This document shows positions 3,009 through 10,098 of a DNA stretch of 36,485 nt, piece by piece. The notes under the pieces are model-generated. The model was not told the DNA's origin. It was given only the letters and a program-made list of their open reading frames with translations, and made no database searches. Each line of letters begins with the position of its first letter. Within the stretch, counting starts at the first letter, position 1. Position numbers and translations under genes: made by a program. The stretch is taken from positions 1-36,485 of the forward strand of contig JAFUEX010000017.1 of assembly GCA_017470165.1 (NCBI GenBank). Direction: 5' to 3'. Source of the DNA: Alphaproteobacteria bacterium (GTDB lineage: Bacteria > Pseudomonadota > Alphaproteobacteria > RF32 > CAG-239).

Positions 3009-3551
3009 ATGGATCAGAAAAAAGAAGATTATCAAGATTGTCCGAAAGCAGCGCAATTTGAACGTGAAATCAGGATGATTGCCAACCGCGATTACGAGGA
3101 ATTTTTGTGTTTGACCGGACGCTATCCTTTGACCGAAAGTGGCGAAATAATGCTGGTTAAAAGCGGCTGGAACAAGGCGATTTCCGATTATGCCAAGCAT
3201 TTTGAAATGAGTACGGAGGCGCAAATCGAGTTGGTGAAAACCGCACCGCAAGGTTTGTTGCTGGAGTATTTGTCCGAAACCGAGATGAACAGCGAGGCGG
3301 ATTTGGCGCTTATTGAGAGCCAAAATTGGGAGGCCGTCAGAGTTTATATCGACGGGTCTACTTTGGGCGAACAAGCGGAGATTAAGTTTTTGGACAGCGG
3401 ACAAGACAAATTGGTGGAGCGTTATTTGGCCACCAATCGCTTGTCAAGAAAAGCTGTTGAAAAATTGATGGCTATGCACAAGGATAATTATTGGCGGGTC
3501 TATGTCAATAGCTGGGGAATTGACGAGCGGGTTGGCAGCATCAAAGTATAA
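3009..3551 (+). CDS. Solenoid-array protein 1 (180 aa, about six 26-27-residue repeats)
   Basis: First of seven tandem paralogues. After about 30 N-terminal residues the protein is a series of units of the form L-[ST]-x-x-[AG]-E-x-x-L-[IV]-x-x-G-x-x-x-x-[IV]-x-x-Y-[IL], for example LTESGEIMLV, MSTEAQIELV, MNSEADLALI and LGEQAEIKFL. Each unit reads as two short helices, so the whole is probably an alpha-solenoid used for binding. There is no signal peptide or membrane helix, so the protein is predicted to be cytoplasmic. It is a short form, without the N-terminal module of the long paralogues at 3699, 5136 and 8361. It has its own promoter and terminator. Family and function are unknown to me; general resemblance to HEAT/ARM-type repeats is inference. 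Confidence 0.85.
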   Translation: MDQKKEDYQDCPKAAQFEREIRMIANRDYEEFLCLTGRYPLTESGEIMLVKSGWNKAISDYAKHFEMSTEAQIELVKTAPQGLLLEYLSETEMNSEADLALIESQNWEAVRVYIDGSTLGEQAEIKFLDSGQDKLVERYLATNRLSRKAVEKLMAMHKDNYWRVYVNSWGIDERVGSIKV

Positions 3552-3573
3552 TTCGGCAAAATACGGATTTATC

Positions 3574-3628
3574 AGGACACCTTAAAGTTTTAAGCAAAGT
3601 TTTTGCAACAAACAGGTGTCCTTTTTTT
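3574..3628 (+). terminator. Intrinsic terminator of solenoid gene 1
   Basis: AGGACACC pairs with GGTGTCCT and is followed by a T tract. The loop is long and contains a smaller hairpin. The next promoter's -35 begins two bases after the T tract. Confidence 0.85.
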
Positions 3629-3629
3629 G

Positions 3630-3657
3630 TTGACTTTTGTCTAAAATATGGTAATTT
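3630..3657 (+). promoter_or_regulatory. Promoter of solenoid gene 2
   Basis: TTGACT, 16 bp, TAATTT. The spacer TTTGTCTAAAATATG is almost identical to that of the gene 4 promoter (6523-6551), showing that the intergenic cassette was duplicated with the genes. The leader contains ATTATTAATTTAA and no Shine-Dalgarno sequence. Confidence 0.7.
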
Positions 3658-3698
3658 GTCGGCGTAATTCGAATTATTAATTTAATATTTTTACGGTA

Positions 3699-5006
3699 AT
3701 GAACAATCTCAGTAATGACGAGATCAATCTTTTGAAAAAGAAGATTGTATCTTATGAGGATTTTAAGCATTATATTCCGAATGCCGAAGATTTGAAAGAC
3801 GCAGATCATAATCAAATTATGGCATTGCTGCGCAAGCGCAGTTTTTACGATGATGTGGTGTTGGAAGACGATGCACAGGTGTTTTTGGTTAACCGCGGCA
3901 ACAAGGAAGAAATTTTGACGATGTTTTCTGTTGTTTCGGACTGGAACCATGCAACCGAAGAGGCTATTGTCAAGTGCGGAGACGACGAGATTATCCTTGC
4001 TTATTTGCGTCAGCATCGATTGCACAGCAAAGAGGCTAGGCAGTTGTTGATTGAGCTTAGTACCGAGCAGAGTGTGGTGGCGCTTATTGACAGATTGTTG
4101 TTTGTACTGGATGACGATTTGCAAGAGATGATTATTAACAAAAAAATGCTAAGGTGTTTTTTTGCGCATATCAAACATCACAATCTCAGCATAGGTGCCG
4201 AAGTGGCACTGATGAGCTCGGATTTGACGCATCCGGCGCTGGTATATATCACTAGAAATTCGTTGAGCGAGGCGGGCGAAAAAGCTATGTTGAACAATGC
4301 GAAGATGAAAGAGGTGGCGGGGTTTTATATTGACCGCACAAGGTTGAGCGAGGCGGGAGAAGCGCTGATGATTGATATCGGTTCGCTGCAGCTGATTAAA
4401 CGCTATATCGACCGTCATCCGCTGGGAGCTCAAGCAATGAAAAAGCTGATTGCTCAACACGAGCATCTGACGGCATTGCTGAGCTATGTGCAAAAGCACG
4501 AGATACCGGCCGAGGCGATGGAAGATTTTGTAACCAGCGAACGGGTGATTGCGGCATCGAGGTATTTTGAACATCATCACTTGACGAATTTTCGCCATCA
4601 GGAGGCGCTGGCTGCACGTGGCTTAAAAGAGATGGTGATGACTTACATCGGTTATTACTATCTGGATGATAGCGCGGAGTGTTTGTTGTTGGATAGAGGT
4701 TGGCCGGATGTGATTAGCTTTTATCTTAAGCGTAACGGACATTTTTTTGCCGATGCCGAGGAAAAGTGGTTGCCTAATGCGCGGCACGAGGATGTGATGG
4801 AGGTGGTAAAACGCCACGAGTTGTGTTTTTCTGCCGAGATGATGCTGATTGAACGCGGCAACAGCGAGGAGATAAAGACCTATATTTCCAATCATTATCT
4901 GTATGATCGTGATGCGCGGGAAAAATTGCTGGAGCGCGGTGTAAAAGAGGAAATCGACATTTTTGTGGAGCGCTATTATCCGAAAATAGCCGATAACAAT
5001 GCTTAA
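3699..5006 (+). CDS. Solenoid-array protein 2 (435 aa, about 14 repeats)
   Basis: A long-form member of the array. Residues 1-53 form an N-terminal module (LSNDEINLLKKKIVSYEDF ... NQIMALLRK) shared with the proteins at 5136 and 8361. From about residue 54 to the end the chain is continuous 26-27-residue repeats, clear examples being LSEAGEKAML, LSEAGEALMI, LDDSAECLLL and LCFSAEMMLI, each followed by a second helix ending near Y-[IL]. The last unit carries the signature LLERGVKEEID and ends in RYYPKI, again shared with the long paralogues. No secretion signal is seen. A large alpha-solenoid scaffold or ligand-binding protein is the best structural guess; function is unknown. It is monocistronic, with promoter at 3630 and terminator at 5016. 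Confidence 0.87.
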   Translation: MNNLSNDEINLLKKKIVSYEDFKHYIPNAEDLKDADHNQIMALLRKRSFYDDVVLEDDAQVFLVNRGNKEEILTMFSVVSDWNHATEEAIVKCGDDEIILAYLRQHRLHSKEARQLLIELSTEQSVVALIDRLLFVLDDDLQEMIINKKMLRCFFAHIKHHNLSIGAEVALMSSDLTHPALVYITRNSLSEAGEKAMLNNAKMKEVAGFYIDRTRLSEAGEALMIDIGSLQLIKRYIDRHPLGAQAMKKLIAQHEHLTALLSYVQKHEIPAEAMEDFVTSERVIAASRYFEHHHLTNFRHQEALAARGLKEMVMTYIGYYYLDDSAECLLLDRGWPDVISFYLKRNGHFFADAEEKWLPNARHEDVMEVVKRHELCFSAEMMLIERGNSEEIKTYISNHYLYDRDAREKLLERGVKEEIDIFVERYYPKIADNNA

Positions 5007-9533: not shown

Positions 9534-9552
9534 GGATAAAGGTTGCGTATTA

Positions 9553-9593
9553 AACGGGTATTAAGGGGAATAACCCCTGATTCCCGTTTTTTT
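9553..9593 (+). terminator. Intrinsic terminator of solenoid gene 6
   Basis: AACGGG pairs with CCCGTT around an inner AGGGG / CCCCT stem, followed by a T tract. Confidence 0.85.
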
Positions 9594-9620
9594 GTGTTTT
9601 GGTCTGACTCGACAAAAACA

Positions 9621-9649
9621 TTGACTTTTGTCAATAAAAGGTGTACCTT
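9621..9649 (+). promoter_or_regulatory. Promoter of solenoid gene 7
   Basis: TTGACT, 17 bp, TACCTT, followed by a leader with TTTATTTATTAACCCTATAA and no Shine-Dalgarno sequence. Confidence 0.7.
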
Positions 9650-9690
9650 AGCAGAGCAATTTATTTATTAACCCTATAATTTTTCAAGCT

Positions 9691-10098
9691 ATGCAAGCAA
9701 GTATCAGAGACCAATTGAGTGTGGTCGAACGCGGAAGTTTGGAGGATTTTAAGAAGTTTGTTGACAGCAATTCGCTCAGTGCTTGCGCCGAAATTCGCTT
9801 AATTGAGCTGGACAAAACCGAGGAGTTTTCCTATTATGTCAGACAGTATCGTATTGAGATGGCCACGCAGATAAAACTGCTGGAACTGGGGACGGAAGCA
9901 ATGCTGAACATTTATTTGCGAAGCAACCATGGTGTGAAGTTTCCTATCAATGCCGAAATTAAGTTGTTGCGGCGCAATGATTTGGTTTTGTTGGCCGTTT
10001 TTTTGCGCTATACTTCGTTTAGTTCGCGAGCAATTTCTTGGATGATGAAGCATTGTGACAAGCGAATGGTTAATGCAGTATTGTCACTCAACAGATAA
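9691..10098 (+). CDS. Solenoid-array protein 7 (135 aa, about five repeats)
   Basis: The shortest and last member of the array. It consists almost wholly of repeats: QLSVVERGSLEDFKKFVD, LSACAEIRLIELD, IEMATQIKLLELG and INAEIKLLRRN. It lacks both the N-terminal module and the RYYP-type ending of the long forms. The last 25 residues are basic (SSRAISWMMKHCDKRM). No export signal. It may be a complete small family member or the trimmed end of a longer one. An intact promoter and terminator argue that it is expressed. Confidence 0.83.
   Translation: MQASIRDQLSVVERGSLEDFKKFVDSNSLSACAEIRLIELDKTEEFSYYVRQYRIEMATQIKLLELGTEAMLNIYLRSNHGVKFPINAEIKLLRRNDLVLLAVFLRYTSFSSRAISWMMKHCDKRMVNAVLSLNR

What the first reader, a model, noticed from the sequence alone, without database searches (positions are those of the whole stretch)
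3009..10098. Array of seven tandem paralogous alpha-solenoid-like repeat genes, each an independent transcription unit
Seven consecutive plus-strand genes encode proteins made of one degenerate 26-27-residue, two-helix repeat. Sizes run from 135 to 444 residues. Each gene has its own promoter and its own hairpin-T terminator, so this is a set of separately expressed variants, not an operon. I recognise no described family. Tandem paralogue arrays with conserved frames and divergent surfaces often serve host interaction, defence or ligand diversification, but that is inference.
Basis: partly seen in the sequence, partly recalled or inferred. Interest (0 to 1): 0.85.

Follow-up and report, generated by a model that had tools for sequence, protein, structure and literature searches.

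The report
Gut-bacterial helical-repeat gene array, undescribed family
A gut alphaproteobacterium carries seven side-by-side genes for rod-like helical-repeat proteins of a family with no match in the libraries searched, each in its own expression unit and with an unusual start-of-message region that lacks the standard ribosome-binding site.

Summary
Window 3009-10098 has seven co-oriented genes built from a degenerate 26-27-residue two-helix repeat (52 units; above shuffles). Corrections: gene 5 is broken by two frameshifts; gene 4 probably starts at 6581. AlphaFold2 gives an all-helical solenoid (pLDDT 82.7). No Pfam or NCBIfam model is passed by the window proteins. By profile the family was found in one GTDB family only: 94 of 153 genomes, 13 of 16 genera; a class sample gave 3 of 289, all of that family. 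Arrays recur in four genera.

New here: these genes form a distinct expression class. None of 122 family genes has a Shine-Dalgarno-like motif, against 244 of 476 other ORFs of the same loci and 23 of 42 ankyrin genes of the clade. About half carry an AU-rich leader with TTATTAA about 25 nt before ATG. Some genes without the repeat have it too.

Function: most likely cytoplasmic recognition scaffolds, co-expressed through this leader. That is inferred, not shown.

The parts
2940..3008 (+). g1 promoter (TTGACT 2940-2945, TATAAT 2962-2967) and SD-less leader with TTATTAA at 2984-2990
   Evidence: leader score 19.2
3009..3551 (+). g1, 180 aa repeat protein; terminator hairpin about 3574-3627
3630..3698 (+). 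g2 promoter (TTGACT, TAATTT) and leader with TTATTAA at 3674-3680
   Evidence: 12.4
3699..5006 (+). g2, 435 aa solenoid with N-cap and C-cap; terminator about 5015-5050
5065..5135 (+). g3 promoter (TTGACT, TAGGTT) and SD-less AU-rich leader without TTATTAA
   Evidence: sequence
5136..6470 (+). g3, 444 aa, same architecture as g2 (34% identity); terminator 6486-6518 plus T-run
6523..6580 (+). g4 promoter (TTGACT, TATTAG, read by eye) and SD-less leader without TTATTAA
   Evidence: sequence
6581..7219 (+). g4, 212 aa repeat protein; terminator 7224-7249 plus T-run
7303..7374 (+). g5 promoter (TTTACC, TATCTT) and leader with TTATTAA at 7349-7355
   Evidence: 21.6
7375..8149 (+). g5, broken repeat gene: two frameshifts, near A runs at about 7658-7662 and 7762-7767; ORFs 7375-7695 and 7778-8149; terminator 8256-8284 plus T-run
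8291..8360 (+). g6 promoter (TTGACA 8291-8296, TACTAT 8314-8319) and leader with TTATTAA at 8337-8343
   Evidence: 21.7
8361..9533 (+). g6, 390 aa, caps like those of g2 and g3; terminator about 9552-9592
9621..9690 (+). g7 promoter (TTGACT, TACCTT) and leader with TTATTAA at 9665-9671
   Evidence: 15.0
9691..10098 (+). g7, 135 aa; 33-35% identical to the distal gene of the array in G009 and G027; terminator about 10120-10159
2303..2857 (-). rubrerythrin-like neighbour, divergent from the array (name from recall); marks the same locus in G009 and G027
29837..30415 (-). 192 aa gene of the window without the repeat but with the same leader (score 19.4)

Best explanation
The locus is a tandem array of single-gene cassettes (sigma-70-type promoter, about 36-nt leader without Shine-Dalgarno sequence, repeat ORF, intrinsic terminator) from a lineage-restricted family of solenoid proteins. 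Shown by sequence: the repeats, the cassette layout, the restriction to one GTDB family as far as sampled, recurrent arrays, purifying selection between orthologues, the SD-less start region. Predicted: a solenoid of antiparallel helix pairs (about 10 residues, 2-residue turn, 10 residues, 4-residue loop) with no catalytic domain recognised. Inferred: the proteins work in the cytoplasm as modular recognition scaffolds that bind protein or peptide partners through variable surface positions; new specificities arise by duplicating whole cassettes and by gaining or losing repeats; the common leader lets many copies be translated as one set, by initiation that relies on unstructured AU-rich mRNA instead of Shine-Dalgarno pairing.
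For: Repeat significance. Two-helix solenoid models: g2, pLDDT 82.7, pTM 0.63; relative L115, single sequence, 73.1 and 0.58. Distribution. Arrays of three or more family ORFs in 12 of 61 loci, up to nine (loci picked for many matches). Terminators 96 of 121 against 111 of 471. SD-like motif 0 of 122 against 244 of 476, and 0 of 116 against 23 of 42 ankyrin genes of the clade. Exact TTATTAA in the last 60 nt: 58 of 122 against 20 of 476. Leader score above 10: 66 of 122 against 12 of 476, with a matrix trained on the family. TTATTA to ATG: median 25, quartiles 24-26.5, 59 genes. Adenines at -14 to -12 (0.60-0.73), -6 (0.58), -3 (0.56), against 0.44-0.48, 0.42 and 0.46 in controls, at positions that raise translation in SD-less Flavobacterium johnsoniae (PMC6847099: abstract and one section read). 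Orthologue dN/dS 0.09-0.25. Core positions change less than the rest.
Against: No partner, localisation or phenotype is known; recognition is inferred from the fold class only. A promoter pair was called for 50 of 119 family genes. TTATTAA is missing from g3 and g4 and from about half of the family; only the lack of SD is general. The leader may in part be inherited with the gene. The leader 15-mer is not much commoner than its reversed control over 20 genomes: by my sum 86 sites against 68. Leaders fold less (-0.86 against -2.50 kcal/mol), but they are also AT-richer (0.79 against 0.69). The spacing count was limited to sites 15-45 nt before ATG and favoured 25 where two were present. bS21 has one match in 56 of 64 genomes and none in 8, which speaks against a bS21-paralogue switch. 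Family genes, and the ankyrin controls (many from one genome), are not independent, so the Fisher values (7e-33 for SD) overstate the evidence.
Confidence: 0.5

Rival explanations
1. The proteins are exported effectors, for instance through a type IV secretion system, that act on a eukaryotic or bacterial neighbour, as ankyrin effectors do in some intracellular bacteria.
For: A VirB4-type ATPase is found in 103 of 129 genomes of the family, own genome included. True ankyrin proteins are frequent there (68 of 82 genomes, at least 69 matches in one). Lineage-specific expansion fits.
Against: No signal peptide or secretion signal recognised; membrane-like stretches in 6 of 127 ORFs, by my reading mostly at mis-set starts or in spurious members. 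The VirB4 tally was not tested for correlation with the repeat genes, and VirB4 also serves conjugation. Ankyrin genes do not share the leader (0 of 42).
Confidence: 0.2
2. The leader is only a relic of shared descent: promoter, leader and ORF were duplicated together, and the motif has no role of its own.
For: Whole cassettes recur in arrays. The leader 15-mer is only mildly commoner than its reversed control (86 against 68 sites).
Against: The leader is seen across genera in proteins of low identity (12-26% to the first row in A2), and at the same spacing before ORFs without the repeat: 16 of 20 hand-picked sites lie 23-30 nt before the ATG of an ORF of 40 aa or more, none matching the repeat profile (best E 0.57), though two are under 50 aa and two have leader scores under 4. 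In held sequence 21 of 40 sites have an ATG ORF 22-31 nt downstream, against 1 of 11 for the reversed pattern (held sequence is enriched for family loci).
Confidence: 0.2
3. A defence or immunity set, each solenoid recognising one phage or toxin partner.
For: Tandem divergent paralogues and one broken copy resemble arms-race loci (analogy only).
Against: No PADLOC match at E 0.1 for the six window proteins tried; weak partial matches in two of four relatives, best ZorD E 4.1e-4. PHROG matches are weak and of unknown function except one tail-fibre match at E 0.36 for g6. Among 85 of 154 neighbour genes the most frequent Pfam families shown are not defence types; 25 of 148 families were shown. 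Orthologues evolve under purifying selection.
Confidence: 0.08
4. A nucleic-acid-binding solenoid that works like PPR or TAL repeats.
For: Modular two-helix repeats of variable number; g4 and g7 are basic (pI 8.45 and 9.2).
Against: Repeat of 26-27 residues, not 33-35 (recalled); median pI 5.9 over 112 members and 4.6-5.5 for g1, g2, g3 and g6.
Confidence: 0.07

Closest known systems
Ankyrin repeat proteins (Pfam Ank_2, PF12796)
   Same: Antiparallel helix pairs in a solenoid; 24 of the 50 listed viral Foldseek matches are named ankyrin, all with E above 0.001; frequent in the same genomes.
   Different: 26-27 residues instead of 30-34 (PMC11514114, passages seen); short loops; no Pfam ankyrin match in the proteins scanned; profile comparison gives probability 0.7%; no ORF matches both profiles; 23 of 42 ankyrin genes have SD and none the leader.
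Leucine-rich repeat variant (LRV; fold from recall)
   Same: Short unit of similar length (recalled); the best viral Foldseek match of the g2 model is named Leucine rich repeat variant, E 8.8e-6.
   Different: TM-score 0.25 and rmsd 28 for that match; no Pfam LRV match; both elements predicted as alpha helix.
TPR, PPR, Sel1 and HEAT alpha-solenoids
   Same: General class: tandem helix pairs, usually binding scaffolds (recalled).
   Different: Their repeats are longer (recalled); no match over a cut-off for the window proteins.
SD-less initiation regions of Bacteroidia (Flavobacterium johnsoniae, PMC6847099)
   Same: No SD, weak structure, adenines favoured at -14 to -11, -6 and -3.
   Different: Here a gene class is SD-less in a genome where about half of ORFs have SD (115 of 217); about half of the class carries an extra TTATTAA about 25 nt before ATG; the adenine excess over control genes is moderate.

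Membership tests
Ankyrin repeat | repeat of 30-34 residues | tested here: not met
   35 of 44 spacings are 26 or 27 residues; ankyrin length from PMC11514114
Ankyrin repeat | matches the Pfam ankyrin models or a local ankyrin profile | tested here: not met
   0 ORFs match both profiles; hhalign probability 0.7%, (small ankyrin set, 22 windows)
Ankyrin repeat | helix-turn-helix plus hairpin loop | tested here: not met
   helix pairs with about 4-residue loops and no strand of 3 or more residues
Leucine-rich repeat variant | matches the Pfam LRV model | tested here: not met
   (HMMER filters may hide weak matches)
Leucine-rich repeat variant | alternating alpha and 3-10 helices (recalled) | tested here: inconclusive
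   model has two alpha helices per unit; best Foldseek hit is LRV-named but TM 0.25; PDB fold search could not be run
Alpha-solenoid (general class) | tandem antiparallel helix pairs stacked in one superhelix | tested here: met
   predicted structures; no experimental structure
SD-less initiation class | no SD motif upstream of the start | tested here: met
   0 of 122
SD-less initiation class | initiation shown to be SD-independent | not testable with these tools
   needs ribosome profiling or reporters

The most novel reading that the evidence does not exclude
In an SD-using alphaproteobacterial lineage, the leader with TTATTAA about 10 nt into the message, a run of adenines and an AU-only stretch up to AUG defines a dedicated SD-independent translation class: a regulon of lineage-specific solenoid and orphan genes recruited to ribosomes by a signal other than Shine-Dalgarno pairing and switched as a set.
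Probability: 0.3. Interest if true: 0.85.

Novelty: new variant of a known kind. Interest (0 to 1): 0.6.

Why it matters
It adds a compact 26-27-residue solenoid repeat to the alpha-solenoid class, confined as far as sampled to one family of uncultured Alphaproteobacteria, some from animal guts by their record titles. More important, it exposes a gene class without Shine-Dalgarno sequences inside genomes that use them, about half of it with a fixed-spacing leader motif. That makes a testable case for selective SD-independent translation in Alphaproteobacteria: swap leaders in a reporter and measure.

Tried and rejected
Known families: Pfam and NCBIfam gave nothing over a curated cut-off for the window proteins. 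PHROGs (five window proteins) and PADLOC (six) have no cut-offs; best PHROG E 0.015, no PADLOC match at E 0.1. Nine relatives gave only sub-cut-off Pfam matches. Among 90 members, 45 Pfam families matched at E 0.01, 25 shown without cut-offs: BibA_N in 5 members (best 4.7e-7), DUF6922 in 5 (2.3e-5), TopoV_HHH in 2 (6.8e-7), and one nitroreductase (1.5e-22) that I read as a false member, L081 3547-4146. I take the helical matches as composition-driven, not tested further. Solved structures: 8fje (E 5.7e-4, titled E8) for one highly regular relative, the rest at E 0.24 or worse, none for L115. Phage origin: no tblastn match for two proteins. Protein-pattern scan of named genomes: nothing; a DNA pattern scan then gave 19 loci, 16 members and 3 chance hits. 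Descent from local ankyrin genes: not supported. Riboswitch in the 27-residue subgroup: no Rfam match over those leaders. bS21 paralogues: at most one match per genome. Not reached: Foldseek against the PDB and the second aligner (library absent).

Limits: profile A1 was built from one genus, so distant relatives may be missed. Class and phylum searches are samples, and the order sample seems to hold little outside the same family. Start codons were taken as the first ATG. Control genes are ORFs of 200 aa or more without a longer overlapping ORF, so some are mis-called. In one search three positions outside my core (6, 14, 17) are as conserved as the core and core position 5 is not (0.25).
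Full report
Observation. The window is contig C8 of a 1.45-Mb, 26-contig, 88.9% complete genome. Seven co-oriented genes lie at 3009-10098. The repeat is real: 52 units of 26 residues, consensus LSEDAEEALIERGSKELVLAYLKRYS, with strong positions among them L1, E6, L9, I10, G13, V18, Y21 and L22; 35 of 44 spacings are 26 or 27. A matrix from other genomes only scores the eight window ORFs 17.0-161.9, the best of 200 shuffles of any of them 10.0; of six control proteins four score 0, one 2.0 and one 7.9, the last above its own shuffles. 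g2, g3 and g6 share by eye an N-terminal cap and a C-terminal cap but are only 24-34% identical (g3-g2 34%, g6-g2 24%). g5 is broken: one frame is open to 7695, a second carries repeat-like sequence to about 7780, a third runs to 8149. Both switches lie near A runs, so pseudogene, slippage and assembly error are all open.

Separate units. All seven genes end in a hairpin with a T-run. Six have a -35/-10 pair by script (50 of 119 family genes do) and g4 one by eye. The generic scan barely exceeds shuffles, but terminator-like hairpins follow 96 of 121 family genes against 111 of 471 controls, so the single-gene layout is a trait of the family.

Family and distribution. No library model fits the window proteins. 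A profile of 35 three-repeat stretches (A1) matches 19 of 36 genomes of the genus, 94 of 153 genomes and 13 of 16 genera of the GTDB family, 76 of 126 in the order sample, every listed match in that same family, 3 of 289 in the class sample, all of that family, and only the own genome among 398 of the phylum sample. An exact DNA pattern scan of the named genome collection gave 19 loci, 16 of them members, all in records titled uncultured Alphaproteobacteria or Alphaproteobacteria bacterium, Rhodospirillales, proteobacterium or Pseudomonadota; two titles name yak rumen and water-deer colon. The pattern sees only one subtype of the repeat. That the lineage is the gut order RF32 is my recollection and not tested. 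Arrays of three or more family ORFs occur in 12 of 61 loci that I had picked for many matches, up to nine genes; gaps under 400 nt have a median of 128. They lie in genera g1, g226, g231 and g235.

Locus history. A rubrerythrin-like gene diverges from the array. In G009 and G027 the same gene (90% identical) diverges from repeat genes: four in G009 (469, 215, 205 and 138 aa), the last 33-35% identical to g7. G027 has a matching set split over two contigs. Of 12 genus genomes with this gene, three, the own included, carry repeat genes beside it; G006 has a weak short match; in G029 the contig ends too soon to tell; the other seven show none in the fetched stretch, 1.9 kb or more. In G005 a repeat gene sits beside the FlgI gene that in G009 lies just beyond the rubrerythrin gene. 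So the locus is shared and its copy number changes; the window has the largest of the three sets seen there.

Selection. Orthologue pairs give dN/dS 0.089, 0.104, 0.145, 0.147, 0.217, 0.241 and 0.246 (seven pairs, three with dS near 2 or more, one with very few changes). Paralogue pairs in the window give 0.38 and 0.46 with dS near 2, and two window-G009 pairs could not be computed. Over ten pairs, eight core positions differ in 14.6% of cases, the others in 25.6%.

Structure. g2 in an alignment of 20 sequences: 31 helices, no strand of three or more residues, pLDDT 82.7, pTM 0.63. L115 as a single sequence shows the same pattern, helix 10, turn 2, helix 10, loop 4 (pLDDT 73.1, but the five models range from 73.1 to 31.5). 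Against viral predicted structures one match passes E 0.001: a phage protein named Leucine rich repeat variant (8.8e-6, TM 0.25); 24 of the 50 listed are named ankyrin. TM-scores are low (0.14-0.39 by query length), so this shows the class of fold, not kinship. Profile comparison with 22 local ankyrin windows gives probability 0.7%.

Leader. In family genes the stretch before ATG has no SD-like motif (0 of 122), against 244 of 476 other ORFs of the same loci and 115 of 217 in about 402 kb of the own genome. Ankyrin genes of the clade, many from one genome, look normal (23 of 42 with SD, 0 of 42 with the leader; repeat genes 0 of 116 and 60 of 116). The leader matrix reads TTATTATTAACT, then AAAATTTTATTATT before ATG; it was trained on family genes and scores above 10 in 66 of 122 of them and in 12 of 476 controls. 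TTATTA begins a median 25 nt before ATG (quartiles 24-26.5, 59 genes, search limited to 15-45 nt) and 15-17 nt (quartiles, 31 genes with a called promoter) after the -10 box, so it lies about 10 nt into the message if the promoter calls are right. Leaders fold less (-0.86 against -2.50 kcal/mol), in part because they are AT-richer. Adenines peak at -14 to -12 (0.60-0.73; controls 0.44-0.48), -6 (0.58; 0.42) and -3 (0.56; 0.46), T at -1 (0.88; 0.37). In SD-less Flavobacterium johnsoniae adenines at -12, -13, -6 and -3 go with higher translation, A-3 and A-6 also in E. coli (PMC6847099, abstract and one section read). In the own-genome sample the leader scores above 12 at nine genes: five of the seven array genes and four others, among them window 29837-30415.

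The leader without the repeat. A 15-mer of the leader with one mismatch gives, by my sum, 86 sites in 20 genomes against 68 for the reversed pattern, so the count alone says little. Position says more: of 20 hand-picked sites 16 lie 23-30 nt before the ATG of an ORF of 40 aa or more, none with the repeat; two of these ORFs are under 50 aa, two have low leader scores, and there was no matched control. By their sequence two look like acyl carrier proteins, one like a band-7 membrane protein and one like a lipoprotein (my reading, not scanned). In 1.63 Mb of held sequence, enriched for family loci, 21 of 40 sites have an ATG ORF 22-31 nt downstream, against 1 of 11 for the reversed pattern. Of nine non-repeat leader genes scanned in Pfam, seven had no match at E 0.01 and two a sub-cut-off match to Lcl_C. 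bS21 has one match in 56 of 64 genomes and none in 8, against a bS21-paralogue switch of the kind I recall for Francisella (PMC9578407, search listing with abstract start only).

Mechanism. I rate as most likely a set of cytoplasmic recognition scaffolds, co-expressed through a shared SD-independent leader. The scaffold role rests on the fold class and on the absence of any other recognised domain in the window proteins; partner and phenotype are unknown. Export as effectors is the main rival: VirB4 in 103 of 129 genomes and ankyrin expansions make it plausible, but nothing ties these proteins to export.

Literature. Searches for RF32 and gut Alphaproteobacteria, for CAG-239 with ankyrin, for alpha-solenoid with tandem paralogues, for LRV and ankyrin solenoids, and for SD-less conserved leaders listed no paper whose title or abstract start describes this family or leader; the library lacks most subscription journals. 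Of PMC11514114 and PMC3837014 I saw passages only.

Noticed in passing
L025, L026, L027, L028, L031 (upstream of seven 27-residue-repeat genes): A different conserved leader, GCGANGRGTCGATGCT-n-TATAACYGAC, just before the start codon, possibly a small hairpin; no Rfam match over it.
   Followed up: partly
L077, L078, L080: Repeat proteins of genus g226 start with a two-copy domain around YPFYxYxDGTCGKSI before the repeats; a similar motif stands in an orphan leader gene (L034 7340-8140).
   Followed up: no
G328 (L190-L195): At least 69 ankyrin matches in a 1.7-Mb genome, many in clusters with their own recurring upstream sequence.
   Followed up: partly
window 30487-33558 (-): 1023-aa protein with a PcfJ-like domain (PF14284, E 6.9e-11), just upstream of the leader gene 29837-30415.
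   Followed up: no
window 20579-20953 (-): Permuted tmRNA gene (by the program's mark, read from recall) with tag ANDNNVASVAMAA.
   Followed up: no
window 7658-7662 and 7762-7767: Both frame switches of the broken gene g5 lie near A5 and A6 runs, so slippage is possible.
   Followed up: partly
L028, L030 (G018): Near-identical consecutive repeats; L030 is cut by its contig end, so recent repeat gain is likely and may break assembly.
   Followed up: no
L171 9681-10985 (own genome C15): Two adjacent non-repeat genes, one adenylate-kinase-like by eye, carry the same leader.
   Followed up: no
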